Positions 1,614 through 44,948 of a stretch of 64,000 nt of DNA are shown here, in pieces. The notes under the pieces were generated by a model, which searched no databases, had not been told where the DNA came from, and worked only from the letters and a program-made list of their open reading frames with translations. The first letter of the stretch is position 1; the number at the start of each line of letters is the position of its first letter. A program made the translations under genes and the position numbers. Source of the stretch: Lacisediminihabitans profunda (GTDB lineage Bacteria > Actinomycetota > Actinomycetes > Actinomycetales > Microbacteriaceae); the NCBI RefSeq assembly GCF_008040105.1, contig NZ_VRMG01000004.1:62001-126000 (forward strand). The letters are read 5' to 3'.

Positions 1614-1633
1614 GCGGGGACTTTCGGCACTGG
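1614..1633 (+). promoter_or_regulatory. DosR-like box A, upstream of the ABC pair
   Basis: GCGGGGACTTTCGGCACTGG resembles the palindromic DosR/DevR site of mycobacteria. It is followed by TAACCT at 1655-1660, a good -10 candidate 21 nt after the box. The next gene starts at 1718 behind its own Shine-Dalgarno sequence. Assigned by eye; regulator not in the window. Confidence 0.5.
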
Positions 1634-1717
1634 GCAGCCAGCGCCGCGCGCTCGTAACCTAGCGGCATCGGGCGTCGCTCAGGGGATCCCGCCGCGGCCG
1701 GCGTGAGGGGATGAGAG

Positions 1718-2401
1718 ATGATTCGAGTCGAGAACGTCTCGAAGATCTATACCCTCGGCACGGTGAAGGTGACCGCCCTGCGAGACGTCTCGTTCGCCGT
1801 GGACGACGGCGAGATGGTGTGCATCAGCGGTCGGAGCGGGTCGGGCAAGAGCACGCTCCTGCGCCAACTCAGCCTGATCGACAAGCCGACCGCCGGTCGC
1901 GTGATCTTCGACGGTCTTGATGTGGTGTCGCTCTCCGAGTCGCGACGATCCGCGCTTCGTCTCGACCGCCTCGGCTACGTGTTCCAGGAGTACGCCCTCA
2001 TCCCGGAGCTCACTGCCGAGGAGAACGTCTTTCTCCCGGCGATGATGCGCGGGGGCAGGTCCCGGGACTATCACGCCCGAGCGCGCAGTCTGCTCGAGCT
2101 CGTCGGCCTGGATGCGCGCGTCGCCCACCGTCCGAAGGAGCTGTCCGGCGGCGAACAGCAACGCGTCGCCATCGCGAGAGCACTCGTGAACGAGCCGTCG
2201 GCGATCTACGCGGACGAGCCGACGGCGAACCTCGACTCGTTCTCCGGGCAGGAGGTCATGCAGACTCTCACGAGACTGAACGCCGAACTGGGCGTCACCA
2301 TCCTCTTCGTGTCCCACGATCCGGACGACGGCCAGTACGCGTCGCGGATGATCCACCTGCGTGACGGCGAGCTCGTGGACGAGCCGGAGCCGGCCGGATG
2401 A
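1718..2401 (+). CDS. ABC transporter ATP-binding protein, LolD/MacB type
   Basis: Cytoplasmic ATPase of 227 residues that should power the permease encoded next to it. Walker A (GRSGSGKST) is at residues 38-46, the Q-loop near residue 90 (YVFQE), the signature LSGGEQ at 142-147, and Walker B (AIYADEP) at 162-168 followed by the D-loop. Length and motifs fit the LolD/MacB/FtsE-like subclass, which drives mechanotransmission or lipid and peptide export rather than nutrient uptake. A purine-rich GGGGATGAGAG stretch just before the ATG supplies the ribosome-binding site. The stop codon overlaps the permease start by four bases (ATGA), so the two are translationally coupled. A DosR-like box lies 85 bp upstream. 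Confidence 0.95.
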   Translation: MIRVENVSKIYTLGTVKVTALRDVSFAVDDGEMVCISGRSGSGKSTLLRQLSLIDKPTAGRVIFDGLDVVSLSESRRSALRLDRLGYVFQEYALIPELTAEENVFLPAMMRGGRSRDYHARARSLLELVGLDARVAHRPKELSGGEQQRVAIARALVNEPSAIYADEPTANLDSFSGQEVMQTLTRLNAELGVTILFVSHDPDDGQYASRMIHLRDGELVDEPEPAG

Positions 2402-3618
2402 CGCGGGTGGGGCGTTCCCTCAGGGTTGCCGTCTTCCTGGCGTTCAAGGGACTCATTCGCGGCAATTTCGGTGTCACGGCCATGACGATCCTGTTGATGG
2501 CCCTCATCTTCGTCGACGTGCTCTTTCTGCCCGCGCTCATCCGGGGCGCGGTGCGCACCATCGACGACCAGGTGATCAACACCGTCACGAGCGACCTCGT
2601 GATCACGGCCTCTGCGGGAGCCGGCACCATCGACAATCCGGGAGCGCTGCTCGCCGAAATCGAGCGGACGAATGGCGTGCGAGCGGCGACGGCCACGACG
2701 CGGGTGGGCACCCAGATCAGCCACGGCAGCGAGTCGAACGCGTGGTCGGTCGATGCGATCGACCCGTCCAGCTATCGCCGTGTATTCACAACTCCCGGCC
2801 ACCTCATCGAGGGCTCCTTCCTCCGCAGCGCCGACACGACCGGCATCGTGCTCGGGGTGGATGTCGCGGGCGCAGACAGGACTCACGAGCGCACGTACTC
2901 GCGTTCCCTCAAGACCGTGCACGCTGGCGACGTCGTGACCGTCACCCTCGCGGGCGGGGTGACCCGCCCGTTCACCGTGCGGGGCATTTACCAGAACCGG
3001 TTCCCGCTTTCGGACCAGGGGGCGTTCATCAGCGATGCCGCGGCGGCGGCGATCCTTCCGGGAGCGCCGGATCGTGCGACGGCGATCTACGTGAAGGCCG
3101 ACGCCGGGGTCTCGTCCGGCGCGCTGAAGGTGCGCCTCGAGCCGCTGAGAACCGGGGTGAACCTCCAGACTCCCGAGCAACTGACGGCGGCCATCCAGGA
3201 TCAGATCGACACCTTCGACCTGATCAACAACATTATGAGAGCGATGTCTCTCCTTGTCGCCGCCATCACCGTCTTCATCATCACCTATGTCGATCTCGTC
3301 AATCGGCGGAGGCAGATCGGCATCGAACGGGCCATCGGGATCACCGCCACGGCGATGGTCGGCAGCTACGTGATCAAGACCGTCGTGAACGCGATCGTCG
3401 GCACCCTCGTCGGCCTCGCGGTGTTCGTGTTCGCCCTCACGCCATTCGTGCAGAGCCACCCGTTCCAGTTCCCCAATGGACCGGTCACCCTCGTTCTGGA
3501 TGCCCAGGAGGCCGCCAGGAACATGGGCGTGCTCGTCGCCGTTGCCGTCGTTTCGGTGTTGATCCCGGCGGTGCGGGCGATGCGGATGAAGATCCTCGAC
3601 GCGATCTGGGGCACCTGA
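2398..3618 (+). CDS. ABC transporter permease, FtsX/MacB type
   Basis: Membrane partner (406 residues) of the preceding ATPase, with which it shares an ATGA overlap. There is one N-terminal transmembrane helix (about residues 20-45), then a large extracytoplasmic domain (about 50-270) that looks like a MacB periplasmic core domain, then three C-terminal helices of the FtsX type. The region after residue 270 carries RRRQIGIERAIGIT, typical of the FtsX cytoplasmic loop. MacB/FtsX-like pairs of this kind export peptides or sense envelope stress; the substrate here is unknown. The position behind a DosR-like box suggests stress-induced expression, which is inference. Confidence 0.9.
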   Translation: MTRVGRSLRVAVFLAFKGLIRGNFGVTAMTILLMALIFVDVLFLPALIRGAVRTIDDQVINTVTSDLVITASAGAGTIDNPGALLAEIERTNGVRAATATTRVGTQISHGSESNAWSVDAIDPSSYRRVFTTPGHLIEGSFLRSADTTGIVLGVDVAGADRTHERTYSRSLKTVHAGDVVTVTLAGGVTRPFTVRGIYQNRFPLSDQGAFISDAAAAAILPGAPDRATAIYVKADAGVSSGALKVRLEPLRTGVNLQTPEQLTAAIQDQIDTFDLINNIMRAMSLLVAAITVFIITYVDLVNRRRQIGIERAIGITATAMVGSYVIKTVVNAIVGTLVGLAVFVFALTPFVQSHPFQFPNGPVTLVLDAQEAARNMGVLVAVAVVSVLIPAVRAMRMKILDAIWGT

Positions 3619-3670
3619 TTACCGCCGTTCGGCGGAAGACGTCACGCGGTGGTTGCGTGGAGGTGAACAG

Positions 3671-3754
3671 ATGCTGAATACTGGTGCACGCCGAGCCAGT
3701 TCGGGTCTGTCACGGCGTGTCCTCGTGGAGGACGGGTGCGGGCTCGGTCACTGA
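3671..3754 (+). CDS. Possible 27-residue leader-like small ORF
   Basis: ATG at 3671 is preceded by GGAGGTG with 5 nt spacing, one of the best Shine-Dalgarno sequences in the window. The frame encodes a basic 27-residue peptide starting MLNTGARRASSG and ends at a TGA inside a perfect 13-bp hairpin. A peptide whose stop codon sits in a hairpin is the layout of a leader peptide or attenuator, but the next gene is 370 bp away, so a regulatory role is only a suggestion. No family is recognised. Confidence 0.3.
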   Translation: MLNTGARRASSGLSRRVLVEDGCGLGH

Positions 3755-3764
3755 CCGAGCCCGC
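3738..3764. terminator. Perfect 13-bp hairpin, possible terminator or attenuator
   Basis: GCGGGCTCGGTCA and its exact complement TGACCGAGCCCGC are separated by one base, so the tip of the stem must open. No T-run follows on either strand, which is common for actinobacterial terminators. It could end the ABC operon transcript 120 bp upstream. Confidence 0.45.
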
Positions 3765-4126
3765 ATTCGAGCCTCCGCGTGTGCGGGAATTCCCTCGTCG
3801 TCGGTCGGCTGGGCATCCGCGTCCCGGACCCCGCCTCGCACCGGCGTGCGAATGGGCCCGGTCTCCCCGAAGAATGCAGCCTGCACAGTGATCCCCTTCA
3901 CTACCAATGGCAAACGGATGCTGCGGCGTCGCGACGGACGTGCGGTCGCGACAGTGGTGGGCGCGGTCCGGAGGAAACCCCCTCCCCCGAATACTGCTGA
4001 GTATCGCGCTGAACCCGACCAATTGTCAATGGACAGGGCCCAATGGAGGCGGTCGTCGCCACCAAACTCGCAGCGGGCGATGCCAGAGTGGTCTAACACC
4101 CCGAACCGACGCAAGAAAGAAGCCCC

Positions 4127-4453: not shown

Positions 4454-4509
4454 CGTCCCGGTCGCGCCCCGCGCCCCTCGCGCCCCGCGGCGGCCCCGTG
4501 CTGCCCACG

Positions 4510-4608
4510 CGCTGCTCCGGAGCATCCACGTTCTGCAGGCCGGAATCGGGCTTGTAGGCGGCAATTCGGGGCCGCGGTGAACCGAACCTCCGGAGAAACG
4601 CGTGTTGG
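4510..4608 (+). repeat. TIR element, copy 1
   Basis: Begins CGCTGCTCCGGAG and ends CTCCGGAGAAACGCG followed by TGTTGG. The ends are inverted copies of each other. The middle holds a small GC-rich hairpin (GGCGGC, AATTCGGG, GCCGC). This copy is the most diverged of the three. Confidence 0.8.
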
Positions 4609-4684
4609 ATGCGTCCGCGGGGGGCTTCCGCGCGCGGCGGAGCCGGGTGCCGTGGTCGCACCGCGCGCCCCGTCGCGCCCCACG

Positions 4685-4782: not shown

Positions 4783-4880
4783 ATGCGTCCGCGGGGGGCT
4801 TCCGCGCGCGGCGGAGCCGGGTGCCGTGGTCGCACCGCGCGCCCCGTCGCGCCCACCCTGCGCCCCGCGTGCTGCCCACG

Positions 4881-5080: not shown

Positions 5081-5100
5081 GAGGGACTTTGGACCGTACG
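5081..5100 (+). promoter_or_regulatory. DosR-like box B, upstream of the FtsH paralogue
   Basis: GAGGGACTTTGGACCGTACG ends 30 nt before the ftsH-like ATG. CAGTCT at 5119-5124 occupies -12 to -7 relative to that ATG, and no Shine-Dalgarno precedes it. Together these predict a leaderless transcript starting at the ATG. Confidence 0.6.
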
Positions 5101-5130
5101 CCGTCGCACGCCTGCCGCCAGTCTTGAACA

Positions 5131-7008
5131 ATGGATGCCCCCGACTCGAATGACCAGCGAAAGCCGGGCTTCTTCGGCAGGCACCAGTGGATCCGCTGGG
5201 TGGCGCTCTCCGTATTGTTGATCGCCGCCGGTGTCTACCTTTTCTCGATCGCTCTGCCCGGGTCCTCCGCCGAGAACCTGAGCTACTCCAAGTTCATCAC
5301 GGCCGTCGAGGCAGGCAAGGTTTCCGAGGTGTCGATCTCGACGGACGGCGCGGCCGCGGGCAAATACGTGTCCGGCACGTTGTTCACCACTGCAATCCCG
5401 GTCATCGACGAGCCCCTACTCGAGACGCTCAAGGCGCAGAAGGTGGATGTGACCGCCGTTCCGGCCGCGACCTCGTCGATCTGGTCGACCCTCGCCGGTT
5501 GGGCCTTCACGCTGCTTCCCTTTGTGCTGCTCGGTTGGCTGTGGTGGCGCATGTCCAGGGCACAGGGAGACGCCCAGGGACTGTTCGGGTTCGCCCGCTC
5601 GAAGGGCAAGCTGTTCGAATCGACCGGACCGAGGACCACTTTCGCGGATGTCGCGGGATACGAGGGGGTGAAGGCCGAGGTTACGGAGATCGTCGATTTT
5701 CTCCGGACGCCCGATCGTTTTCGCAGACTGGGGGCGAAGATCCCCCGCGGTGCCCTCATGGTCGGTCCGCCGGGCACCGGCAAGACGCTGCTGGCGCGCG
5801 CGGTGGCCGGCGAAGCGGGAGTGCCGTTCTTCTCGGTCGACGGATCGAGTTTCGTCGAGATGTTCGTCGGCGTCGGGGCCTCACGCGTTCGCGACCTGTT
5901 CAAGGAGGCGCGCAGCCGGGCTCCGGCAATCGTCTTCATCGACGAGATCGACTCCATCGGTCAGCGGCGATCCGGCACGACGTCGTTCGTGTCGAACGAC
6001 GAGCGCGAGCAGACGCTCAACCAACTGTTGGCCGAGATGGATGGCTTCGACGCCGCCAGCGGCGTCGTGGTGCTCGCCGCCACGAACCGGCCGGATCTGC
6101 TCGATGCCGCCCTCCTGCGCCCGGGGCGCTTCGACCGCAGGATCAGCGTGCCGCTTCCGATGGTCTCCGAACGGCGCGCCATCCTCCTGGTCCACTGCCT
6201 GGGCAAGCCGATCGAGACGGGCGTGGACTTCGACGTGATCGCGCGCGGCACTCCCGGCTTCTCGGGTGCCGACCTGGCCAATCTCGCGAACGAGGCTGCG
6301 ATTGAGGCCGTGCGAAACTCCCGCGACAGCATCACCCAGGCCGATTTCGACGCCGCCCGCGATCGTTTGGTGTTGGGACGCCGGGACAACTCGACGGTGC
6401 TGCTTCCCGAGGAGAAGGAGGCCATCGCCGTTCACGAGTCCGGACACGCCCTCGTGGCCGCGCTGTGCCCCCGGGCCGACCCCGTCTCCAAGATCACCAT
6501 CCTGCCGGCCGGCGAGAGCCTGGGCGCCACGCATCAGTTGCCCGAGGTCGAGCGCCACCTCTACGGTCAGGACTACCTCGCCGACGACCTGGCCGTGCGG
6601 CTCGGCGGTCGGGCCGCGGAGATTGTGGCCTTCGGCCAGGGCTCGTCCGGCGCGAGCAACGACCTGCTGGGGGCGACTGCCCTGGCGACGAGGATGGTGC
6701 GGGAGTTCGGCCTGTCACCGCGCCTTGGTCCGGTGAGCTACTCACGAGCCGACAACGGAAGCGGTTCGGTCTTCGACCGGCCGTATTCCGATGAGACGCA
6801 GGCAACCGTCGACAGCGAGGTGGCCCGACTGCTGCGGGAGGCCGAGGCCCGCGCGATCCAGCTCATCACCGACCATCGCCGGGTTCTCGACCTGCTGTCG
6901 TCTCTGCTCGTCGAGCGCGAAACGGTCGACGGCAGCGTCGTCTACGACCTCATTGCGGCGGAGAGCTCGACCGTGACCGGCGCCGGCGACCAGCGCCGTC
7001 GAGCGTGA
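5131..7008 (+). CDS. FtsH-like ATP-dependent zinc metalloprotease (paralogue)
   Basis: Membrane-anchored AAA+ protease of 625 residues that should extract and degrade membrane and cytosolic proteins as a hexamer. Two transmembrane helices (about 23-43 and 124-141) flank a short extracytoplasmic part. The AAA module has Walker A (GPPGTGKT, 212-219), Walker B (IVFIDEID, 267-274) and the second region of homology ([20 protein letters not shown]). The protease domain has the zinc motif HESGH (435-439; HEAGH in most FtsH) and a likely third ligand Asp511. It is shorter at the C-terminus than housekeeping actinobacterial FtsH, which usually sits near folate genes; here the neighbours are stress-type genes, so this looks like a second, conditional copy. 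The last 59 bp overlap the convergent gene. Confidence 0.93.
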
Positions 7009-8044: not shown

Positions 8045-8311
8045 CTATCTCGGCGAGGCGAAATGAACGGAGAGCGGAGTGGTGGCCGTGATCAAGAGCA
8101 ATTCAACGCCCTCACGATGCAACAGCGGCACGAGTTGCGCGTCACCGTCGTCGATGAGCCGTTGGGCGTGATGCAAGAAGATCCCCGCCATCTCCGCTGA
8201 GGCGACGAACTTGCGTCCGCCGTGATGGATGCAGACGGGCCGGGTGTTCCTGGTCGCCGGGGTGCGCTCCTGTACTGTGTCGCCGAGCGTCGCTGCTGCC
8301 AAGCCGATCAC
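8045..8311 (-). CDS. Small protein of unknown function behind a DosR-like box
   Basis: The C-terminal 60 residues look like a genuine globular domain (VCIHHGGRKFVASAEMAGIF, then LHHAQRLIDDGDAQLVPLL), rich in histidine and ending in a beta-type segment (ELLLITATTPLSVHFA). No family is recognised. The start is uncertain. I chose GTG at 8311 (88 residues); an in-frame ATG at 8413 lies almost inside the upstream box and has its GGAGG directly abutting it. A predicted transcription start near 8393 makes the internal GTG more plausible. It faces the divergent small gene at 8613; both have boxes. Confidence 0.55.
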   Translation of the reverse strand: MIGLAAATLGDTVQERTPATRNTRPVCIHHGGRKFVASAEMAGIFLHHAQRLIDDGDAQLVPLLHREGVELLLITATTPLSVHFASPR

Positions 8312-8425
8312 GAGTCCACGTCCATGGTTCGCTCCACTCCGAGTGTCTGGGGAGATGTGGCCGAGCGGACGCAAATGCTCACTCCGCCGTGCACCTTCGA
8401 TCCTGCCGGACATCCTCCGGCCGAT

Positions 8426-8445
8426 TAGGGGCTTAGGTCCCCCTC
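8426..8445 (-). promoter_or_regulatory. DosR-like box C
   Basis: On the plus strand it reads TAGGGGCTTAGGTCCCCCTC, a near-perfect palindrome that on the minus strand contains GGGGGACCTAAGCCCC. CAGGAT at 8405-8400 (minus strand) lies 20 nt downstream and would serve as the -10 for the leftward gene. Confidence 0.55.
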
Positions 8446-8523
8446 GAAGGGGACGGGGGCGAACCGACGGTGGTTCCGCGGCCGGCCGGCGTCGTTCGGG
8501 TCGGCGGCCCGCTCGGCCCGGCA

Positions 8524-8543
8524 CGGTGTCCTAAGTCCCTGTC
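8524..8543 (+). promoter_or_regulatory. DosR-like box D
   Basis: CGGTGTCCTAAGTCCCTGTC; the minus-strand reading contains GGGACTTAGGACA. CACGAT at 8563-8568 follows 19 nt later, predicting a start near 8575 and a 38-nt leader that contains the strong Shine-Dalgarno of the gene at 8613. Confidence 0.55.
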
Positions 8544-8612
8544 GCAGGACCGACCCCGGTGGCACGATGGCCGTCACACGTTGACGAATTTCCGATAAGG
8601 AGGTCAGTGACC

Positions 8613-8822
8613 ATGAGAGACGAACCCGACGTCTTTTCACCGGGAAGTGCCGAATTGCCCGATCCAGAGTATCCGTTTGCCCCCGTGCCGGCCCTGTCGG
8701 CGCCCACGCTCCGCGTGGTCTCCTCGCAGCTCATCGATCAGATACAGCGCTCTCTCCAGAACGCTCGCCTCGTGCCGCATCCGTTGACCCACCGGCGGAG
8801 GGCGCATGGCTCACACGGCTAG
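8613..8822 (+). CDS. Small hypothetical protein (69 aa)
   Basis: Starts at ATG 8613 behind AAGGAGGT with 8 nt spacing. The peptide begins MRDEPDVFSPGSAELPDPEY, is proline- and acid-rich in the first 30 residues, and then has an amphipathic helix (SSQLIDQIQRSLQNARLV). No family recognised. Box D lies 69 bp upstream, so it is predicted to be co-regulated with FtsH and the BON gene. Its 3' end overlaps the next gene's 3' end by four bases (tail to tail). Confidence 0.6.
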   Translation: MRDEPDVFSPGSAELPDPEYPFAPVPALSAPTLRVVSSQLIDQIQRSLQNARLVPHPLTHRRRAHGSHG

Positions 8823-9109
8823 GCACGAGCGGTGGCGGAATCCGGCCCAGCGTCCTCCAGCACGGTGACGTCGAGTGAGGCGAGCCGCACAACATAGCGG
8901 ATCGCACTGTCGAAGTCGTCAAAGTATGGGCGCTCGGACGGGAAACGGACCGAGTTCGCGCCGTAGAGGTTGCCGATCTTGCGGACGTTCCCCATCAGCT
9001 GGCGTGGCGCGTCGGCCGTTCCGTGCAGATCATGGATGTTCCAGAGGATGTTCGAGACCTCGACGACGGCAACACCCTCGAGCATCCATTCGCCGGCCAC
9101 GGCAGTCAT
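8819..9109 (-). CDS. Hypothetical protein (96 aa)
   Basis: Begins at ATG 9109 with GGGAG five bases upstream; a GTG two codons earlier would overlap that ribosome-binding site. The product is a compact soluble protein with conserved-looking stretches (NILWNIHDLHGTAD, NLYGANSVRFPSERPYFDDF) and a hydrophobic C-terminal strand (VVRLASLDVTVLED). No family recognised. On the minus strand TACGGT at 9167-9162 lies 20 nt beyond box E, giving a short leader before the ATG. It shares box E with the divergent gene at 9297. Confidence 0.7.
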   Translation of the reverse strand: MTAVAGEWMLEGVAVVEVSNILWNIHDLHGTADAPRQLMGNVRKIGNLYGANSVRFPSERPYFDDFDSAIRYVVRLASLDVTVLEDAGPDSATARA

Positions 9110-9187: not shown

Positions 9188-9207
9188 TCCGGGACTTTGG
9201 TCCGGCC
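9188..9207. promoter_or_regulatory. DosR-like box E, shared by two divergent genes
   Basis: TCCGGGACTTTGGTCCGGCC is a symmetric site midway between the genes starting at 9109 (minus) and 9297 (plus). A TANNNT hexamer is placed correctly only toward the minus-strand gene; toward the plus strand I see no clear -10. Confidence 0.55.
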
Positions 9208-9961: not shown

Positions 9962-9981
9962 GGCGGGACCTTCGACTCTCC
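9962..9981 (+). promoter_or_regulatory. DosR-like box F
   Basis: GGCGGGACCTTCGACTCTCC ends 32 nt before the ATG at 10014. GAGTCT occupies -12 to -7 relative to that ATG, and there is no Shine-Dalgarno, again predicting a leaderless mRNA. Confidence 0.55.
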
Positions 9982-10013
9982 GGGGCTCTCCTGGCGGGTG
10001 CGAGTCTTGGCAG

Positions 10014-10430
10014 ATGACCCCACCGACGAGCGCGTCCTCGACCAGCAGATCACGGATAATCATCGCCTTGGTGCTCGCGGCCGTGGCCATTCCCCTTCTG
10101 GTGCTCGGGTTGATCGACCCGCTCGAGGGCGGCCTCGCCCTGGTGGGCGTGGTCGTGCTCGGCGTCGCCGTGCGTCTCCTCTCGAAGGTTCGCGTTCCTC
10201 GACTGGCCTGGATCTCCATCATCGCCACGGTGGCCGTCGGCGCTCTCACCATTGTCCTCGCCGTGACCGCGCGCCCTCAGCCGGCTGTAGGGGGCACCGT
10301 GGCGTCGCCGGTCTCTGGGGTAATCCTCGGGCTGCTCTGGGTCTACCGCCTCGGCGTTCTCAGCACCCTGGCCGGCGGGGTGCTCTACATCGTGCGACTG
10401 GTTGGGTCGCTCGAGCGAAACCGGCGATGA
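10014..10430 (+). CDS. Small membrane protein of unknown function (138 aa)
   Basis: A 138-residue protein with four predicted transmembrane helices (about 14-34, 38-58, 65-85 and 103-127) and short polar loops; the C-terminus is basic. No family recognised. Upstream it has box F and a GAGTCT hexamer in exact leaderless geometry, while an ordinary ribosome-binding site is absent. It lies between the coiled-coil protein and the BON protein, in the same orientation. Confidence 0.65.
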   Translation: MTPPTSASSTSRSRIIIALVLAAVAIPLLVLGLIDPLEGGLALVGVVVLGVAVRLLSKVRVPRLAWISIIATVAVGALTIVLAVTARPQPAVGGTVASPVSGVILGLLWVYRLGVLSTLAGGVLYIVRLVGSLERNRR

Positions 10431-10454: not shown

Positions 10455-10474
10455 TTGGGTCTTTGTTCCCTACG
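10455..10474 (+). promoter_or_regulatory. DosR-like box G, upstream of the BON gene
   Basis: TTGGGTCTTTGTTCCCTACG ends 31 nt before ATG 10506. CATCAT lies at -12 to -7 of that ATG and no Shine-Dalgarno is present. Confidence 0.55.
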
Positions 10475-10505
10475 CCGCCTGCCCGGTCGCGCGCATCATT
10501 GCGGC

Positions 10506-11189
10506 ATGAATACATCACCCAACTCCCCGAGCAACGACGATCTCACGGTGAAAGAGGAGGTCGAAGAGGAACTGTTGTGGAATCCGGAGGTGGATCCCGC
10601 CCGTATCGGCGTCTCCGTGCACGACGGCGTAGTGACTCTCACCGGCGAGGTGCGCACATTTGCCGAGAGAATCGCGGCCACCGAGGCCGCGATGGCGGTC
10701 CGTGGGGTCCTGAGCGTGGCTGACGACCTCACCGTGGATCTCGCGGACGAGGCGGCGCAGAGCGACACGCACGTCGCTCACGCCGTGTTGGACGCGCTCG
10801 CACGGGACACCGCGATCCCCGCGGGAGCGATCACCGTCGAGGTGCGGGACGGCACCGTCACTCTCAAGGGCGAGGTCGAGTGGAATCACCAGCGGGAAGG
10901 CGCGCGGCGAGACGTCGAACACCTGCCGGGTGTGCGCTTTCTCGACAGCCGCATCGAGCTGAGCAGACGGCCGTCGGCATCCGACACGGAGGAACGCATC
11001 CGCCGTGCCATCGTGCGCAACGCTCAATTGGACGCCAGCCACATCCACGTCTCGATCGACGGAACGGTGGCCACGATCACCGGGGAGGTGAGGTCCTGGG
11101 CGGAGAAGAGGCAGGCGTCGCTCTCCGCCTGGCGGTCGCCGCATGTCACGTCCGTTCACAACGAGATCAAGGTCAAGCCGAGCTACTGA
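10506..11189 (+). CDS. Triple BON-domain protein
   Basis: A 227-residue protein made of three consecutive BON domains (about residues 16-80, 85-150 and 155-222), each showing the pattern of a variable helix, then I-x-V-x-V-x-DG-x-V-T-L-x-GEV. BON proteins such as OsmY bind phospholipid or stabilise envelopes under stress. There is no signal peptide, so this one is probably cytoplasmic, like the BON proteins common in actinobacterial stress islands. I start it at ATG 10506 rather than the upstream in-frame GTG because box G and its -10 would otherwise lie inside the gene. Confidence 0.88.
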   Translation: MNTSPNSPSNDDLTVKEEVEEELLWNPEVDPARIGVSVHDGVVTLTGEVRTFAERIAATEAAMAVRGVLSVADDLTVDLADEAAQSDTHVAHAVLDALARDTAIPAGAITVEVRDGTVTLKGEVEWNHQREGARRDVEHLPGVRFLDSRIELSRRPSASDTEERIRRAIVRNAQLDASHIHVSIDGTVATITGEVRSWAEKRQASLSAWRSPHVTSVHNEIKVKPSY

Positions 11190-11375
11190 GAGAAGTCCGC
11201 GCAGGCACATCGCTTCTGCCTCACTGGAATCGTAAGGTCGAGGTGAATTCGAAGCGGGGCCAAAATGTGGCACTGGTGTCTCCCCAAGGTGGGACGTACT
11301 CTGGAAGGGAGTAACCCAAGACCCCGGTGGCTCCGAACCGTCGGGGGCGCCGTGTGCCCAGTGGCGGGAGTAGTC

Positions 11376-12428
11376 GTGTCTAACCAGTTGGCCCTGACCG
11401 ATGACAGAGCGCGTCGTCGATCCGCCGTTGGAGCTGCTGCTATTGCGGCTGCCGATGCCAGGCGGTTCGATTCGACGAGGATCGATGCTGCATCGGATGA
11501 TGGTGCTCCGTTGCACGTCGTGCTGAGACGACTCGTGACCGCTGCGGTGGATGCAGGGGGCGCAGATTCCGGTGCCCTCGCGCTGTTTTCGCCGAAGGGT
11601 GCTGTCACCAACTTCGTGTCTGTCGGCCGACCCGAGCAGGTTGATACAACCGGCACTCTCGACTCGCCGCTCGGCATCGTGGACCTCGTTCTCGACAATC
11701 CACGGCCGATCAGGCTCAGCGTGCCGGGCAACGCGTCAGGCAGCGTCCCCGAGCTTCGCACCGTCGAGAGCATCTTGGGGGTGCCGGTCGCGGTGGGCGA
11801 CGAGGTTCTCGGCTGTCTGTACCTCTGCAACCACGAGTCCGGTCTGTTCAGCGACCGCGACGAGAGGATTCTCGAGGAATGGGCACTGGCCGCCGCACTC
11901 GCCGCTGACCATGGTCGCGTGCTCGCGGAGGTGCGTCGCCGACGTGACTGGACGGCGATCTCGGCGGAGGTGGCGTCCGCCCTCGTGACGAGTACGGACA
12001 GCGAGGCGATGGACCTGTTCACCGACCGGCTGCTCGGCCTGACCGGCGCGGACTTCGTGGCGTTGCTCCAGGTGAGCCAGGTCACCGGTTCGCTCGTGGT
12101 GAGCGCCGTTCGCGGGCTCGAAGAGGAGGACCTGGATGCGGCGGTGCTCGCGGTGCCCGGCACACGGGCGCGCGGCATCTTCGAGGGTCGGCATCCGATC
12201 CTGATCGACGATTGTGTGGAGGTCGGACTCAGCATCCTGCGGGAGGGTGCGCTCGGGCCGGGCATGGTGATACCACTCACTGCTCCCAGTCGGGCGGTGT
12301 CGATCCTGCTGGTGGCGCGTTCATCCGGGGCGCCACCGTTCGGCGGTACCGATCTCGAGATGACGGCCGACTTCGCCGAGCTTGCCACGGTGGCACTCGC
12401 GCTCGCGACACCGCACGCGGCCCTCTGA
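11376..12428 (+). CDS. Double-GAF protein resembling the DosS/DevS sensor without a kinase
   Basis: A 350-residue soluble protein with two GAF domains. The first (about 40-185) contains LVLDNPRPIRL and ILGVPVAVGDEVLGCLYLCN, closely following the GAF-A of mycobacterial DosS/DosT; the second (about 200-345) is weaker. The protein ends right after GAF-B: there is no dimerisation helix, HisKA or ATPase domain. The segment before LGVPV lacks the histidine-rich stretch that supplies the haem ligand in DosS, so haem binding is doubtful. GTG 11376 is chosen because GGGAG precedes it. It follows the BON gene and precedes the GyrI gene. Probably a signal-binding partner that acts on another protein. 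Confidence 0.8.
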   Translation: MSNQLALTDDRARRRSAVGAAAIAAADARRFDSTRIDAASDDGAPLHVVLRRLVTAAVDAGGADSGALALFSPKGAVTNFVSVGRPEQVDTTGTLDSPLGIVDLVLDNPRPIRLSVPGNASGSVPELRTVESILGVPVAVGDEVLGCLYLCNHESGLFSDRDERILEEWALAAALAADHGRVLAEVRRRRDWTAISAEVASALVTSTDSEAMDLFTDRLLGLTGADFVALLQVSQVTGSLVVSAVRGLEEEDLDAAVLAVPGTRARGIFEGRHPILIDDCVEVGLSILREGALGPGMVIPLTAPSRAVSILLVARSSGAPPFGGTDLEMTADFAELATVALALATPHAAL

Positions 12429-12450: not shown

Positions 12451-12470
12451 CCGGGGCCGAAGGTCCCTCG
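12451..12470 (+). promoter_or_regulatory. DosR-like box I, upstream of the GyrI-like gene
   Basis: CCGGGGCCGAAGGTCCCTCG; the minus-strand reading contains GGGACCTTCGGCCCC, the best match in the window to the classical site. TAGGTT at 12491-12496 follows 20 nt later and is a strong -10, predicting a start near 12503. Confidence 0.65.
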
Positions 12471-12555
12471 TGGTTCCCGGCCGAACGGCCTAGGTTTGAG
12501 GGCATCGGCGTCGATCGATGCCGTGCCGCGGGTGACCGAGAAGCGGAGCATCACC

Positions 12556-13011
12556 ATGAACGTCCAACGAGTCGAGCTTGAGCCGCGCACAATCTACGGG
12601 GTGCACGAGGTCATTCCGATGAGTGAGCTGACCGACTTCTTCGGCCGCGCCCTCGCCGAGGCAGCCGCCGAAATGGGCAAGCAGGGCGCATTCCCCGGCG
12701 GGCCTCCCGTCGCCCTGTACCACGGGATGCCGACAGACACGATCGACGTGACCGCCGGCTTCCCGGTCTCGCGGGCGGTGGCTCCGGCCGGCAGAGTCGT
12801 CGTGGCGACCCTGCCCGGCGGCAGCGCGGTGGAGGCCACGCATGCCGGACCGTACGACACCCTCGCAGAGACGTACGGCGAGATCAGCGCGTGGATCGCG
12901 GATCAGAAACTCACTCCCGCCGAGGACATGTTCGAGGAGTATCTGGTGGGTCCGGATGGCGAATCCGATCCGGCGAACTGGCGCACCCGAATCGTGTTCC
13001 CGCTGGCCTGA
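12556..13011 (+). CDS. GyrI-like small-molecule-binding (AraC effector-binding) protein
   Basis: A stand-alone GyrI-like domain of 151 residues, the fold used by SbmC/GyrI and by effector domains of AraC/MerR regulators to hold small amphipathic ligands. Recognisable parts are the first strand with GVHEVIPMSELTDFFG, a central PVALYHGMPTD, the repeat strand VVVATLPGGSAVEATHAGPY, the helix TLAETYGEISAWI, and the C-terminal EEYLVGP with RTRIVFPL. GGAG lies 7 nt before the ATG. No DNA-binding domain is present. Box I and TAGGTT place it in the putative stress regulon; it could bind a stress metabolite or hydrolyse a small molecule. Confidence 0.85.
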   Translation: MNVQRVELEPRTIYGVHEVIPMSELTDFFGRALAEAAAEMGKQGAFPGGPPVALYHGMPTDTIDVTAGFPVSRAVAPAGRVVVATLPGGSAVEATHAGPYDTLAETYGEISAWIADQKLTPAEDMFEEYLVGPDGESDPANWRTRIVFPLA

Positions 13012-13017: not shown

Positions 13018-13656
13018 TCACGAGCAGTCGGCCGGCGCGCACACGATGATGGGCACCCGGTAGCTGAGCAAGCCGCTGTACAGGCGAATCAAGGCGGCGC
13101 GCGAATGAGACTCTGCGCAGTCCCCCGGGCAGCTCACCGGTCGCTGGTTCTCGACCGTCAGATGGGTGCTCGTGAGGATCGCCACCTGCAGGTCGTCCGG
13201 GAGCGCCGTCCACCGCCCGTCGGCATCCGGGCTCGCCCAGTCGAGGGCGTCGAAGCCGAGGGCTCGGAGGTTGTCGATCAGTTCCCGGGTCTGCTCGTTC
13301 GGAGTGGTCGTGAGCGCAAGCGAGACCGAGTTGCCCGCGGCGGCGCAGGCCGCAACGTGCAGGGCGATTCGCAGCGCGGCGACCTCGGGTCCTGCGACGA
13401 TCATCACTCGCCCGAGGGGGTGGACGTCGACTGCCTCGATGGCCTCCCCGTCGACGCGCAGAGCCCCCTCCACATTCCGGGCCATGTCGCTCTCGAGCAG
13501 GAAGATCTGGGCTGCCGCCTGCCGCAGAGCCGAGGCGTTACAGGAGGCGAGTCGGGTGGCGAAAACCTTGAGCATCCGGGAACGTGACCGCAATTCTTTC
13601 GGTGCCCGCTGACGGGATGCCGGTGGCCAGTCCTGGACCGCGGCAATGAACTCCAT
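13018..13656 (-). CDS. Hypothetical protein (212 aa) behind a DosR-like box
   Basis: A soluble alanine-rich protein with no firm family. The middle (PLGRVMIVAGPEVAALRIAL followed by HVAACAAAGNSVSLALTTTP) faintly recalls the cofactor-binding half of aldehyde dehydrogenases, but the catalytic half is missing, so this is only a hint. Several cysteines occur near the C-terminus (CPGDCAES, VCAPADC). The ATG at 13656 has no Shine-Dalgarno; CACGGT occupies -12 to -7 and box J ends 31 nt upstream, predicting a leaderless mRNA. It converges on the GyrI gene with a 6-bp gap. Confidence 0.65.
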   Translation of the reverse strand: MEFIAAVQDWPPASRQRAPKELRSRSRMLKVFATRLASCNASALRQAAAQIFLLESDMARNVEGALRVDGEAIEAVDVHPLGRVMIVAGPEVAALRIALHVAACAAAGNSVSLALTTTPNEQTRELIDNLRALGFDALDWASPDADGRWTALPDDLQVAILTSTHLTVENQRPVSCPGDCAESHSRAALIRLYSGLLSYRVPIIVCAPADCS

Positions 13657-13687: not shown

Positions 13688-13707
13688 ACAGTGCCATAGG
13701 TCCCCCG
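13688..13707 (-). promoter_or_regulatory. DosR-like box J
   Basis: The minus-strand reading is CGGGGGACCTATGGCACTGT. It ends 31 nt before the ATG at 13656, with CACGGT at -12 to -7 of that ATG. Confidence 0.6.
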
Positions 13708-13719: not shown

Positions 13720-14109
13720 TTACCCGTCTTTGCCGTGTCCCTTGTCTCTCCCCTTGGGCTTGGTCGGAGTGGGCGAGGGAGTCGGAGTGGGGGTCGGTGT
13801 GGGGGTGGCCTTCGGCCCGAGGTCCGAACGCACCAGATCGATGGCGGCCTGGATGCGCGCGCCGCGATCGCGGCTCACGAGTCCGGCCGCCATGTCCCCC
13901 TCGAGTTGGCTCTGAAGCGAATCGAGCGATGCCAGGGCGGCCGAGTAGTCCCTCGAGGCGGCTTGCTCGGCCACGAGACGCACGGAACTCTGGAGGGACG
14001 TCGCGGCGTCCCTGCTCAGATCGGTGGTCGGCGCACATCCGGCGAGCATCACGCCGACGGTGATCACCGCCGCGAGAACCGGGATCCGCGTGCGGCGGGG
14101 GCCCATCAC
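13720..14109 (-). CDS. Small lipoprotein with Thr-Pro stalk
   Basis: A 129-residue exported lipoprotein. The signal peptide ends in a lipobox (VGVMLAGC), so the mature N-terminal cysteine should be lipidated. A helical domain (about 30-98) with repeated acidic and small residues follows, then a threonine-proline stalk (PTPTPTPTPSPTPT) and a basic lysine-rich tail. No enzymatic motif is visible. The ATG overlaps the stop codon of the kinase gene by four bases, so the two are translationally coupled and the lipoprotein is a plausible sensor or ligand partner for the kinase's outer tail. Confidence 0.8.
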   Translation of the reverse strand: MMGPRRTRIPVLAAVITVGVMLAGCAPTTDLSRDAATSLQSSVRLVAEQAASRDYSAALASLDSLQSQLEGDMAAGLVSRDRGARIQAAIDLVRSDLGPKATPTPTPTPTPSPTPTKPKGRDKGHGKDG

Positions 14110-15368
14110 TTGGTCACGCTCGCGAGAAGCTGGCGAAGGTGCGCGTCGAGTTGGCCGCCCACCGAGGGCAGGGAGGCGGTCGGAGCCGGAGCGGGATTGC
14201 CGTGGGCGAACAGCACGAGCACGACCACGACGGCCGCCAGCGCGAGCACGGTGAGCCCCACCGCCAGGACGCGTCGAGGGAGGCGTCGTCGAGGGCGCGG
14301 CATCTCTTCGTGACCGAAGACCTCGGTGCGCTGGCCGGTGTCGCCGGAGGGTCGGACGGCGGCCGCCGGCGCGGTGTGGCCGCCGAGAACGGCGGTCGGC
14401 GCATCCGTCATCAGTGCTGTCGGTGCGTTGTCCTGGCCGTCATCGGGCGTGGCGAAGGCCACGGTGTCGCTGCGGTCGAGCTGGGATCCCGCGCTGCGCT
14501 CGATGGCATGGGCCGACTCGGCGACCTCGAGCGCGGAAGGGCGCTCCGCCGGGCTCTGGGCCGTCATTGCCGTGAGCAGCTGAACCCAGTCGGTTCCGAG
14601 GCTCGCCGGTACCACCGGATCCCTGGCCAGCCGAGCACCGAGCGACTCGACCATGGAGCCGGGGAACTCGCGGGTACCCGTGAGCGTCTCGAGCAGCACC
14701 AGACCGAGGGCGTAGATGTCGGTGGGGGCGCCGGGCGCCTCTCCCTTGGCCTGCTCCGGGCTGACGTACGCCGCCGTGCCCACGACGGTGCCCGGGGTCG
14801 TGAGCCGCGTCGAGTCGATGAGGTGGGCGATGCCGAAGTCCGCGAGCTTTGCCCGGAATTCCCGGTTCGACACCGGGGACGGGGCGAGGAGGATGTTGGC
14901 CGGCTTGATGTCCCGGTGAACGACGCCCCGAGCGTGAACGACGTGCAACGCTTCGGCGAGGTCCGCGGCCATGGCCGCGACATCCGATTCGGCAACCGGG
15001 CCACGTTCGATCCTCGCCTGGAGGGTCGGTCCGTCCACAAGTTCCATCGCCAGGTAGGCACGTTGGTCCGACCTGTCATCTTCGACGTTGGCGTCGAACA
15101 GCGTGACCAGGGCGTGGTGGTTCAGCGAGGCGAGCAGCCGGATTTCGGAGGTCTCCCGCCTGAGGGCCTCGGCATCCGTGGCATTGCTGTCGAAGAGTTT
15201 GAGCGCTACCGTGCGACCGAGCGACTCGTCCCGCGCCCGGTAGACCGACGCCATTCCACCGCGGCCGATCAGGCCCTCGATGCGATAGCGATCGCCGACG
15301 AGGGTGCCTCGGAGGGCCGCGTCTCGTCCGTGGTTCTCTGGCACACTGCTCCTTCGCGACGATCTCAC
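14106..15368 (-). CDS. PknB-type Ser/Thr protein kinase, membrane anchored
   Basis: A 420-residue Hanks-type kinase. The catalytic domain (about 28-285) is complete: glycine loop GRGGMASVY (35-43), ATP-anchoring Lys57, catalytic loop HRDIKPAN (151-158), DFG (177-179) and activation-segment end YVSPEQ. A low-complexity juxtamembrane linker follows, then one transmembrane helix (about 368-390), and only about 30 extracytoplasmic residues rich in proline and serine. There are no PASTA domains. The downstream lipoprotein overlaps it by four bases. Proteins with this layout usually respond to envelope or osmotic cues; the substrate is unknown. Confidence 0.93.
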   Translation of the reverse strand: MRSSRRSSVPENHGRDAALRGTLVGDRYRIEGLIGRGGMASVYRARDESLGRTVALKLFDSNATDAEALRRETSEIRLLASLNHHALVTLFDANVEDDRSDQRAYLAMELVDGPTLQARIERGPVAESDVAAMAADLAEALHVVHARGVVHRDIKPANILLAPSPVSNREFRAKLADFGIAHLIDSTRLTTPGTVVGTAAYVSPEQAKGEAPGAPTDIYALGLVLLETLTGTREFPGSMVESLGARLARDPVVPASLGTDWVQLLTAMTAQSPAERPSALEVAESAHAIERSAGSQLDRSDTVAFATPDDGQDNAPTALMTDAPTAVLGGHTAPAAAVRPSGDTGQRTEVFGHEEMPRPRRRLPRRVLAVGLTVLALAAVVVVLVLFAHGNPAPAPTASLPSVGGQLDAHLRQLLASVTK

Positions 15369-31929: not shown

Positions 31930-31949
31930 GGGTGACTTTCGGCCCACGA
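31930..31949 (+). promoter_or_regulatory. DosR-like box K, upstream of the flavodoxin
   Basis: GGGTGACTTTCGGCCCACGA keeps the CTTTCGGCCC half exactly. CAGGGT at 31968-31973 follows 18 nt later as a -10 candidate; the flavodoxin starts at 32018 with a Shine-Dalgarno. Confidence 0.55.
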
Positions 31950-32017
31950 CGCGGTGCCGGGCGCTGTCAGGGTAGGGAAGGGTCGAGCGGCCCGTGCACC
32001 GAGCCTGAGGAGGAGCA

Positions 32018-32563
32018 ATGTCAGTTCTCATCGCCTACGCGAGCAAGTACGGTTCGACGGCGGAGATCGCCGAGCGCATCGCGGGGAAGCTCTGCGATCT
32101 CGGCCAGAACGCGCTCGCCGTGCCCGCCGAGGCGGCCGGCGACCCGACCGCCTACGACGCGATCATCGTCGGCAGCGCGGTCTATCTGGGCTCCTGGCGC
32201 AAGGAAGCCACCGACTTCGTGCGGCACAACCGCGCGACCCTGTCCGCTCGCCCCGTCTGGCTGTTCAGCAGCGGGCCGCTCGGCACGGAAACCACGGACA
32301 TCAACGGCAAGGACCTCGAGGTCGAGGCCAGGCCCAAGGAGATCGATGAGTTCGAGAGCGAGATCTCCCCGCGGGGATCGCACGTCTTCTTCGGCGTGCT
32401 CGATCCAGAGAAGCTCGCGGGGCGGGACCGGCTCATGCGGCGGTTGCCGCCCGTGCGAGAGATCCTGCCCGAGGGCGACTTCCGCAACTGGGACGAGGTG
32501 GATGCATGGGCGACCTCGATCGCCGACGAGCTCGCCCGGTCCACACCGTCGTCTACCGAGTGA
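32018..32563 (+). CDS. Flavodoxin-domain protein (HemG-like)
   Basis: A 181-residue flavodoxin. The FMN phosphate loop is YASKYGSTAEIAERIA (8-23), followed by typical strands DAIIVGSAVYLGSW and PVWLFSSGPLG. This is the long-chain menaquinone-dependent protoporphyrinogen oxidase/flavodoxin type common in actinobacteria. GAGGAG precedes the ATG. Members of this family appear in hypoxia or stress regulons, and box K upstream agrees. It overlaps the convergent GH4 gene by 11 bp. Confidence 0.9.
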   Translation: MSVLIAYASKYGSTAEIAERIAGKLCDLGQNALAVPAEAAGDPTAYDAIIVGSAVYLGSWRKEATDFVRHNRATLSARPVWLFSSGPLGTETTDINGKDLEVEARPKEIDEFESEISPRGSHVFFGVLDPEKLAGRDRLMRRLPPVREILPEGDFRNWDEVDAWATSIADELARSTPSSTE

Positions 32564-39989: not shown

Positions 39990-40057
39990 GCCCGATGGTA
40001 TCGCCGAGCCGGGTTCCTCCGCTCGGTGGCGGAGCACGTCCCGGCCCGCGCGGCGGG

Positions 40058-43480: not shown

Positions 43481-43624
43481 GCGCAGACTCCCCTGGTGTC
43501 GAGCGAGTGCCCGGTGCGCGGGCCGCTGCGGTGGTTGCAGCAGGTCCGTGGATGAAGACTAGCCCGAGGGTCCGACGCCCGGCCGGGCGACCGCTGGCGC
43601 CCCCGACCGAGGCTGTGCGGGCGA

Positions 43625-44650
43625 CTACACCGCGCTCGACTCCGCCCACAGGTTGATGCCCATGTCCACGGCGTGCTCATCGATGGCGGCGAGCTCCTCG
43701 GCGGTGAAGGCCAGGTTGCTCACGGCCGCGAGATTGGCCTCGAGCTGCTGCACGGACGACGCGCCGACGAGCGCCGATGTCACGCCGGTGTTGCGCAGAG
43801 TCCAGGCGATGGCGAGTTGGGCCAGGGTCTGGCCGCGGCCCGCGGCGATGTCGGTGAGGGCCCGGATGGCGGCCAGGGTGTCTTCGTTGATCATGCTCTT
43901 CTGCATCGAACCCGCGCGCGCGGCCCGGGCGTTCTGCGGAATTCCCGCGAGGTAACGGTCGGTGAGCAGGCCCTGCGCGAGCGGCGAGAACGCGATGCAG
44001 CCGACGCCGAGCTCGCCGAGGGTGTCGAGCAGGTCATCCTCGATCCAACGGTTGAACATCGAATAGGAGGGCTGGTGGATGAGCAGGGGCGTGCCGAGTT
44101 CGGCGAGGATCGCGGCCGCCTCCCTGGTACGCGCCGGCGAGTACGAGGAGATGCCGGCGTAGAGCGCCTTGCCCGAGACCACGGCGGAGTGCAGCGCGCC
44201 CATCGTCTCTTCGAGCGGGGTGTTCGGGTCGGCGCGGTGCGAGTAGAAGATGTCCACGTAGTCGATCCCCAGGCGCGCCAGCGACTGGTCGAGGCTCGCG
44301 GTGAGGTACTTGCGCGACCCGAAGTTGCCGTACGGACCAGGCCACATGTCATAGCCCGCCTTGCTGGAGATGACCAGCTCGTCGCGGTAGGGCGCGAAGT
44401 CACGCCGCAGGTGCTCGCCGAAGTTGGCCTCGGCGCTGCCGTAGGGCGGCCCGTAGTTGTTCGCGAGGTCGATGTGGGTCACGCCGAGGTCGAAGGCGCG
44501 ACGCAGGATCTGTTGCTGGCGCTCCATCGGAACGTCGTGGCCGAAGTTCTGCCAGAGCCCGAGCGACACGGCGGGCAACTGAAGCCCGCTTCGTCCGGTG
44601 CGGCGGTACGGCATGAAGTCATAGCGGGAGTCGGATGCGAGATAGGTCAC
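43625..44650 (-). CDS. Aldo/keto reductase, YghZ/Gpr-like
   Basis: A 341-residue NADPH-dependent reductase of the subfamily typified by L-glyceraldehyde-3-phosphate reductase. Catalytic residues are visible: Asp and Tyr in THIDLANNYGPPYG, Lys in VISSKAGYDMW and His in FYSHRADP. The NADPH-binding end (ALVGASSVQQLEANL) is also typical. It would detoxify small aldehydes such as methylglyoxal or L-GAP. Transcribed alone; the helicase gene starts 144 bp further left. Confidence 0.93.
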   Translation of the reverse strand: MTYLASDSRYDFMPYRRTGRSGLQLPAVSLGLWQNFGHDVPMERQQQILRRAFDLGVTHIDLANNYGPPYGSAEANFGEHLRRDFAPYRDELVISSKAGYDMWPGPYGNFGSRKYLTASLDQSLARLGIDYVDIFYSHRADPNTPLEETMGALHSAVVSGKALYAGISSYSPARTREAAAILAELGTPLLIHQPSYSMFNRWIEDDLLDTLGELGVGCIAFSPLAQGLLTDRYLAGIPQNARAARAGSMQKSMINEDTLAAIRALTDIAAGRGQTLAQLAIAWTLRNTGVTSALVGASSVQQLEANLAAVSNLAFTAEELAAIDEHAVDMGINLWAESSAV

Positions 44651-44688
44651 CAGTCCATACTGCCTGACCGATGACCGGGCCGCGCGTC

Positions 44689-44880
44689 CTAGGTGTGCTG
44701 GTCGTGCGCGATCTCGAAGTCCGACCCGGGCTGGATCACGCTCTCGTGGCCGTCGTCGAATCGGATCACATACGGTGGCCCACCGCCCTCGCCCCGGACC
44801 TCGATGACCTCGCCGTGGCGATCCGGTGATTCGACCGTGCGTCCGCGAATGACGATTCGGTCACCTGTTTTTGCCTGCAT
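44689..44880 (-). CDS. DUF1918 protein
   Basis: A 63-residue SH3-like protein of the DUF1918 family, almost confined to actinobacteria. It begins MQAKTGDRIVIRGRTV, has the family-typical RHGEVIEVRGEGGGPPY and ends in FDDGHESVIQPGSDFEI. GGAGGTGTTGGCA supplies the ribosome-binding site. Function unknown; such proteins are often stress- or stationary-phase-induced. It diverges from the phosphoribosyltransferase gene, and box L lies between them. Confidence 0.9.
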   Translation of the reverse strand: MQAKTGDRIVIRGRTVESPDRHGEVIEVRGEGGGPPYVIRFDDGHESVIQPGSDFEIAHDQHT

Positions 44881-44928
44881 TGCCAACACCTCCAGACTGT
44901 CAGGGTACGCCGATGGACGGCCGAATCC

Positions 44929-44948
44929 ACAGGGCCTTTCGACCTTTG
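44929..44948 (+). promoter_or_regulatory. DosR-like box L
   Basis: ACAGGGCCTTTCGACCTTTG ends 31 nt before ATG 44980, with CAAACT at -12 to -7 of that ATG and no Shine-Dalgarno. It may also serve the divergent DUF1918 gene. Confidence 0.55.

What the first reader, a model, noticed from the sequence alone, without database searches (positions are those of the whole stretch)
1614..44948. A DosR-like regulon: eleven palindromic boxes upstream of stress-type and unknown genes
Eleven sites of about 20 bp share a GGGAC-type half, a central TTCGG, TTTGG or TTAGG, and a GGCCC- or GGTCC-type half (for example CGAGGGACCTTCGGCCCC at 12451-12470, minus strand, and TCCGGGACTTTGGTCCGG at 9188). They resemble the DosR/DevR site. 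They precede the MacB-type ABC pair, an FtsH paralogue, five small unknown genes, a triple-BON protein, a GyrI-like protein, a flavodoxin and a phosphoribosyltransferase, which are gene types known or plausible in dormancy regulons. Nine of the eleven cluster within 1.6-13.7 kb.
Basis: partly seen in the sequence, partly recalled or inferred. Interest (0 to 1): 0.78.

Follow-up and report, generated by a model that had tools for sequence, protein, structure and literature searches.

The report
A predicted DosR low-oxygen regulon
Eleven short DNA boxes in this actinobacterium look like promoter switches of the DosR low-oxygen/nitric-oxide dormancy system known from mycobacteria, here placed before a local set of stress genes, several apparently read as messages that begin at the start codon itself.

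Summary
The genome (4.0 Mb, apparently Microbacteriaceae) has a DosS-DosR pair on another contig (DosR vs DevR E 8e-70; DosS keeps heme and phospho-acceptor histidines). A matrix trained on other genomes' sites ranks all eleven reader sites in the window's top 15. Of 62 genome-wide consensus matches, 27 of 29 with matrix score 12 or more lie between genes, against 2 of 13 below 5. Across 398 family genomes the exact box co-occurs with DosS (73 of 116 versus 29 of 282; reversed pattern, no association). Aligned on the box, a -10 hexamer lies 29-31 bp downstream of the centre in 94 of 138 sites, and an ATG at 41-42 bp in 37 of 138 (4.3 expected): a box near -42 and many leaderless messages. All eleven window boxes have the hexamer on at least one side (eight on the usual side, three only on the other, where the family shows little excess); none of the next eleven matrix hits does. 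Nearby lies a kinase-less, heme-ligand-less twin-GAF relative of DosS with no counterpart found. New member of a known kind; induction and binding untested.

The parts
1617..1630 (+). DosR-type box for the ABC transporter pair; -10 TAACCT at 1655-1660; ATG at offset 94
1718..3618 (+). MacB-type ABC ATPase (1718-2401) and FtsX-like permease (2398-3618)
   Evidence: Pfam ABC_tran, FtsX
5083..5096 (+). DosR-type box; -10 CAGTCT 5119-5124; ATG of FtsH paralogue at offset 41 (leaderless geometry)
5131..7008 (+). FtsH paralogue (FtsH_ext, AAA, Peptidase_M41); best matches in the 12 other genus genomes are 46-52% identical, like this genome's second FtsH (51%)
8428..8441 (-). weak DosR-type box, NAnnnT on both sides (8405-8400 minus, 8466-8471 plus); target uncertain (small minus-strand ORF within 8045-8413?)
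8526..8539 (-). weak DosR-type box; -10 CACGAT 8563-8568 (+), on the less usual side, facing a 69-aa ORF
8613..8822 (+). 69-aa unknown ORF preceded by AAGGAGG
   Evidence: no Pfam
9191..9204 (+). DosR-type box; -10 TACGGT on the minus strand (9167-9162), on the less usual side, facing the 96-aa gene
8819..9109 (-). 96-aa unknown protein
9965..9978 (+). DosR-type box (top matrix hit of the window); -10 GAGTCT 10002-10007; leaderless geometry (ATG at 42)
10014..10430 (+). 138-aa protein, sub-threshold HlyIII similarity (E 0.006)
10457..10470 (+). DosR-type box; -10 CATCAT 10494-10499; leaderless geometry (ATG at 42)
10506..11189 (+). triple-BON protein; its relative elsewhere in the genome and the one in genus genome G102 also have boxes upstream
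11376..12428 (+). kinase-less twin-GAF protein related to DosS (40% to own DosS); lacks the heme-ligand His and the kinase; no box of its own, possibly read from the BON promoter (inference)
12454..12467 (-). DosR-type box; -10 TAGGTT 12491-12496 (+), on the less usual side, facing the GyrI-like gene
12556..13011 (+). GyrI-like protein
13691..13704 (-). DosR-type box; -10 CACGGT (13668-13663, minus); leaderless geometry (ATG at 41)
13018..13656 (-). 212-aa unknown protein
31932..31945 (+). DosR-type box; -10 CAGGGT 31968-31973; facing flavodoxin (ATG at 79)
32018..32563 (+). flavodoxin
   Evidence: Pfam Flavodoxin_5
44932..44945 (+). weak DosR-type box with NAnnnT on both sides: CAAACT 44968-44973 towards the phosphoribosyltransferase (leaderless, ATG at 41), TACCCT 44907-44902 towards DUF1918
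44980..45669 (+). phosphoribosyltransferase-domain protein
44689..44880 (-). DUF1918 protein

Best explanation
The eleven boxes are operator sites of the genome's own DosR-type response regulator. Inferred chain: the GAF-GAF kinase DosS senses low O2 or NO/CO through heme, phosphorylates DosR, and DosR~P binds GGGACYTTNGGYCC centred about 42 bp upstream of the transcription start, overlapping -35, where it helps RNA polymerase use a weak NAnnnT -10. In about a quarter of family sites (37 of 138), and at five of the eleven here, the predicted transcription start coincides with the ATG, giving leaderless mRNA. In this strain the system also controls an accessory block (ABC exporter, FtsH-like protease, BON, GyrI-like, small proteins, perhaps the kinase-less DosS relative). 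Shown: regulator genes, box, box/-10/ATG spacing, co-occurrence. Inferred: binding, signal, direction of regulation, transcript ends.
For: DosRS present with conserved HTH and catalytic/heme residues. Boxes around dosR/dosS in other species (29 of 37 DosS loci of other genomes have a hit at >=12); box and DosS co-occur across 398 genomes, 73/116 vs 29/282. 27/29 good matches intergenic. Classic dormancy-type targets of this genome have boxes upstream: universal stress proteins, Hsp20, phosphoketolase, cytochrome bd, zinc alcohol dehydrogenase, pyridoxamine-oxidase-like (positions; Pfam). -10 hexamer at 29-31 bp and ATG at 41-42 bp; 11 of 11 window sites with the hexamer on at least one side. 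Same motif as the mycobacterial consensus GGGACTTNNGNCCCT quoted in PMC6448022 (passage).
Against: No expression, start-site or binding data. DosRS lies on another contig, not beside the window genes. 43 of 116 genomes with DosS lack an exact box, and 29 of 282 without a DosS call have one (4 of these 29 had weak DosS-like hits, which saw only 100 genomes). At moderate scores window hits do not exceed the reversed-matrix control. In 8526, 9191 and 12454 the hexamer is on the side where other-genome sites show it only slightly above background (27 of 200 against 9.3%). The 8428 box has no clear target. Matrix 2 was seeded through matrix 1, whose 17 training sites (16 called intergenic) I picked from own-genome matches, so one search is not wholly independent; the spacing and the 398-genome tests do not use it that way. 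Gene starts come from a crude caller of mine.
Confidence: 0.9

Rival explanations
1. The boxes belong to another NarL/LuxR-type regulator that shares the GGGAC..CC motif class; DosR is a bystander.
For: Sixteen GerE-domain places exist in this genome; NarL-family sites look alike in general (recalled).
Against: The boxes cluster at dosRS itself and co-occur with DosS across the family; the DosR stretch LAEKTVKNYVS is identical to DevR in the alignment and the box equals the DevR/DosR consensus.
Confidence: 0.06
2. Only the seven boxes ranked first to seventh by matrix 2 are real; the weak ones (8428, 8526, 9191, 44932) are chance matches picked by eye.
For: By box score they are within the reversed-matrix range; for 8526 and 9191 the hexamer is on the side with little excess in the family (27 of 200).
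Against: All four have the hexamer at the family spacing; 44932 also has an ATG at 41 bp. For 8428 both sides match and no gene start fits, so it is the least certain.
Confidence: 0.3
3. Chance: GC-rich intergenic DNA yields such palindromes.
For: A loose consensus is not enriched genome-wide.
Against: as above; 19 FtsH/AAA control loci (72 kb) have 0 hits at >=12.
Confidence: 0.01

Closest known systems
DosR/DevR regulon of Mycobacterium tuberculosis
   Same: Orthologous regulator and GAF-GAF sensor kinase; same box; start-proximal box overlapping -35 (PMC3029386, passages). Rv0569 and Rv0571c appear among the DosR-regulon transcription units of PMC2275270 (passages); by recall they are a DUF1918 protein and a phosphoribosyltransferase, the kinds of gene that flank the 44932 box.
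   Different: Another family; FtsH/ABC/BON/GyrI-type targets; marked leaderless geometry.
OsdKR regulon of Streptomyces coelicolor
   Same: DevR functional orthologue outside mycobacteria, palindromic box, universal stress protein, alcohol dehydrogenase and pyridoxamine-oxidase targets, sites around osdR (PMC5069765, abstract and passages).
   Different: Consensus AGGGCCGATCGGCCCT; different accessory targets.
PolS-PolR of Microlunatus phosphovorus
   Same: DevSR-like pair (PMC6754071, passages).
   Different: Reported site GTTCACnnnnnGTTCaC, unlike this box.
DosS/DevS GAF domains
   Same: The window protein (searched as the frame 11265-12425) aligns to DevS GAF-A (2y79, E 8e-15) and, with its second half, to GAF family protein 2vjw (E 3e-6).
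   Different: No kinase, no proximal heme histidine.

Membership tests
DosR/DevR regulon | NarL-type response regulator orthologous to DevR | tested here: met
   3c3w E 7.8e-70 over 1-203; next best is VraR at 6.5e-41; no reciprocal test made
DosR/DevR regulon | GAF-GAF heme sensor kinase next to it | tested here: met
   2vzw/2y8h/2w3d GAF-A and DosT/DevS ATPase hits; heme His, Tyr and phospho-His columns kept in own DosS; heme binding itself not tested
DosR/DevR regulon | box GGGACTTNNGNCCCT | tested here: met
   matrix columns of 88 sites from other genomes; consensus quoted in PMC6448022
DosR/DevR regulon | promoter-proximal box overlapping -35 | tested here: met
   -10 hexamer at 29-31 bp in 94 of 138 sites, ATG at 41-42 bp in 37 of 138; transcript starts not mapped
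DosR/DevR regulon | boxes near the regulator genes | tested here: met
   46 vs 0 in 16 named Microbacteriaceae dosR loci; own dosRS locus has boxes at L049 8463, 9989 and 12507
DosR/DevR regulon | induction by hypoxia/NO through DosR | not testable with these tools
   no expression data
DosS/DosT sensor kinase (for the protein at 11376-12428) | histidine kinase module | tested here: not met
   no HisKA_3/HATPase match, protein ends after the second GAF
DosS/DosT sensor kinase (for the protein at 11376-12428) | proximal heme histidine in GAF-A | tested here: not met
   His in 35 of 40 rows, not in this one; the other non-His rows are L080, L084 and two loci cut at a contig end that my script extracted wrongly (L085, L095)

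The most novel reading that the evidence does not exclude
In this family the DosR regulon is built as a leaderless regulon: box, -10 and ATG are locked in register so that DosR-driven messages start at the AUG, letting dormancy proteins be made by ribosomes that no longer favour Shine-Dalgarno messages; and in this strain a kinase-less, heme-less DosS derivative encoded inside the regulon feeds back on DosS (for instance by mixed dimers).
Probability: 0.15. Interest if true: 0.7.

Novelty: new member of a known kind. Interest (0 to 1): 0.48.

Why it matters
It extends a dormancy circuit known from mycobacteria and Streptomyces to another actinobacterial family, with a quantified promoter geometry that helps to predict DosR targets from genome sequence alone, and it names new candidate dormancy genes (an FtsH-like protease, BON and GyrI-like proteins, a kinase-less DosS relative). 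The rows listed by my paper searches (lists capped, e.g. 25 of 55 and 15 of 195) showed no DosR-regulon study in Microbacteriaceae and no title or abstract start on the box-to-ATG spacing; I read only passages of the papers named, and most subscription papers are not in the library.

Tried and rejected
Counting loose consensus hits genome-wide: not enriched over the backwards control; abandoned for matrices and geometry. Own-trained matrix at moderate cut-offs: no excess over the reversed matrix in the window; against shuffled windows 7 hits vs a mean of 2.6 at >=12 (where the printed 'obs 0' is a placeholder of my script). Footprinting of single window genes in the 12 other genus genomes: BON relative in 1, flavodoxin relative in 1, and for the FtsH paralogue only 46-52% matches, so these genes look accessory; the G102 BON relative has two strong boxes upstream (matrix 1: 22.6 and 19.6), the G110 flavodoxin relative has none at >=12. 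Kinase-less twin-GAF relatives elsewhere: none recognised in 12 other genus genomes, in 116 of 398 family genomes with a match at 1e-20 (5 candidates per genome scored), in the matches of 297 order genomes at 1e-25 (21 with a match), or by pattern scan of genome contigs (147 pattern matches, 0 relatives). Short frames met: G009 (440 aa; the kinase motif lies in another frame), G228 (464 aa, at a contig start), G097 (451 aa, partial match, not examined) and weak partial matches in 259- and 254-aa frames of G103 and G104 (not examined). Tree of GAF regions: the window protein is a 2.4-long branch, so its origin stays open. RNA element before the GAF gene: no Rfam match at gathering score, fold z -0.77. 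First pass of DosS extraction forgot strand and was redone. Distances were rounded to even numbers; onwards uses exact offsets.
Full report
What was claimed. Eleven DosR-like palindromes upstream of stress-type genes in 1.6-45 kb.

Regulator. The genome (4,016,580 bases, 171 contigs; window = C106:62001-126000) has 16 GerE matches. One, at C2:96850-97488, is a DosR ortholog: its best solved relative is DevR 3c3w, E 7.8e-70, with the stretch LAEKTVKNYVS identical. Just upstream is a 561-aa GAF-GAF-HisKA_3-HATPase protein whose GAF-A best matches DevS-type structures (2vzw 2e-43; 2y8h, 2w3d) and whose ATPase matches DosT/DevS. It keeps the heme-site His and Tyr and the phospho-acceptor His (residue roles recalled from M. 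tuberculosis DosS). Around it lie universal stress proteins, a flavodoxin, cytochrome bd subunits I and II with ABC transporter genes (CydCD by position and reading), a pyridoxamine-oxidase-like protein and a phosphoketolase. The nearest named DosR loci are Microbacteriaceae (77% to a Microbacterium MAG, 75% to a Glaciihabitans MAG), hence the family assignment, which is inferred; membership of the named genera in that family is recalled.

Box. A loose consensus is no better than its backwards control genome-wide (62 vs 74). I trained matrix 1 on 17 sites outside the window, 16 of them called intergenic. Applied to other species it gives 46 hits vs 0 for the reversed matrix at score >=15 in 16 named Microbacteriaceae dosR loci (322 kb), 108 vs 3 in all 80 dosR loci, and 0 vs 0 at >=12 in 19 FtsH/AAA loci (72 kb); 29 of 37 DosS loci from other genomes have at least one hit at >=12 (44 hits vs 5 reversed). 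In the window it gives 6 vs 0 at >=15, 7 vs 5 at >=12, 14 vs 11 at >=9.5. Matrix 2, from 88 distinct sites of other genomes found with matrix 1, ranks 9965, 1617, 5083, 13691, 12454, 10457, 31932 first to seventh in the window and all eleven within the top 15. Its commonest letters read GGGACYTTCGGCCCT, the mycobacterial GGGACTTNNGNCCCT (PMC6448022, passage).

All 62 consensus matches in the genome were put in gene context and scored with matrix 2: score >=15, 24 of 26 between genes; 12-15, 3 of 3; 9-12, 2 of 4; 5-9, 8 of 16; below 5, 2 of 13. One of the two high-scoring exceptions (C2:87520) is at the very end of a gene, 35 bp before the next start. Gene starts came from a crude caller of mine, and matrix 2 was seeded indirectly by own-genome intergenic sites, so this test is not wholly independent.

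Link to DosRS. In 398 family genomes (own included), the exact pattern GGGACYTTHGGYCC occurs in 73 of 116 with a DosS match (E <=1e-20) and 29 of 282 without (Fisher 3.6e-26); the reversed pattern in 33 of 116 and 85 of 282 (p 0.81) (handles copied by hand). In the 13 genus genomes (own included): 17 copies vs 1 reversed.

Promoter geometry. I aligned 233 distinct sites (33 own, 200 other) on the box centre without using gene calls. In the orientation of GGGAC..GGYCC, ATG peaks at offset 42 (40 of 233; mean 3.3 per offset), and TAnnnT, though rare, peaks at 29-31 (15 in all; mean 0.3 per offset); on the other side there is no ATG peak and a smaller TAnnnT one. For the 138 own plus family sites: ATG at 41 or 42 in 37 (expected 4.3; P 3e-24), 33 of 132 without the window's sites; NAnnnT at offset 30 in 58, at 29 in 27, at 31 in 13, against 0-8 at other offsets from 15 to 59, 94 of 138 sites having at least one (89 of 132 without the window); the peak persists in the 98 sites without an ATG at 41-43 (20, 32, 11). 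With +1 at offset 42, the hexamer is at -12 to -7 and the box at about -42. In M. tuberculosis the start-proximal Dev box overlaps -35 (PMC3029386, passages), and leaderless messages are common in mycobacteria (PMC3898074, PMC8022548, passages). Non-family actinobacteria in the set also show ATG peaks at 42 and 43 (11 and 10 of 95; mean elsewhere 1.25).

The eleven sites under this test. All 11 have NAnnnT at 29-31 on at least one side (background 9.3% per side among noncoding anchors; 5e-9 for either side in all eleven). None of the next 11 matrix-2 hits of the window (score >=6.3; ten inside called genes, where base rates may differ) has it on either side; the twelfth (31980, 6.0) does. Eight have it on the usual side; 8526, 9191 and 12454 only on the other, where other-genome sites show it in 27 of 200, so it weighs less there, although two of the three are full TAnnnT (TACGGT, TAGGTT) facing a gene. 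ATG at 41-42: 5083, 9965, 10457, 13691, 44932. So three of the five boxes that are weak by matrix 1 (10457, 13691, 44932) are supported by spacing; 8526 less so; 8428 remains uncertain because both sides match and no start fits. The 9191 box points to the minus strand.

Targets. ABC ATPase and FtsX permease, FtsH paralogue, 69-, 96-, 138- and 212-aa unknowns, triple BON, GyrI-like, flavodoxin, phosphoribosyltransferase with divergent DUF1918. The last two resemble by name the M. tuberculosis regulon members Rv0571c and Rv0569 (regulon membership: PMC2275270 passages; their domain names are recalled). BON, FtsH paralogue and flavodoxin are nearly absent from the genus genomes held: an accessory block.

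Kinase-less DosS relative. The 350-aa protein at 11376-12425 is not in the finding. It is 40% identical to own DosS (whose GAF region is up to 72% identical to other DosS), matches DevS GAF-A and 2vjw, and ends before any kinase. The heme-His column is His in 35 of 40 rows; here not. No kinase-less twin-GAF relative was recognised in the searches listed under Tried and rejected. Third-codon GC is 0.76 against 0.88 +/- 0.04 in 124 long genes, so it is atypical. It has no box of its own and lies 187 bp after BON. A decoy, a mixed-dimer partner, or a decaying copy are all open.

Verdict. Real, and best explained as a DosR regulon: ordinary in kind, apparently undescribed in this family, with two features worth following: the locked leaderless geometry and the kinase-less DosS relative. 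All steps from sensing to transcription are inferred.

Noticed in passing
window 11376-12428: Kinase-less twin-GAF DosS relative lacking the heme-ligand His; no counterpart recognised in the genomes sampled; atypical third-codon GC.
   Followed up: partly
window 11190-11375: GC-rich 187-bp stretch between BON and the GAF gene that looks able to fold; no Rfam match, fold z -0.77.
   Followed up: yes
L050 9988-10022 (C65:116588-116622): Two boxes back to back between a divergent universal stress protein and a second triple-BON protein; the BON relative in genus genome G102 (L114) also has a pair of boxes upstream.
   Followed up: partly
window 14106-15368: Serine/threonine protein kinase beside the boxed block; no box of its own seen. 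PMC12919924 (search listing and start of abstract only) reports STPK phosphorylation of DosR in M. tuberculosis.
   Followed up: no
   Followed up: yes
233 sites: A second ATG peak at offset 34-35 on the box (16 and 8), probably the AT of a TAnnAT -10 followed by G.
   Followed up: no
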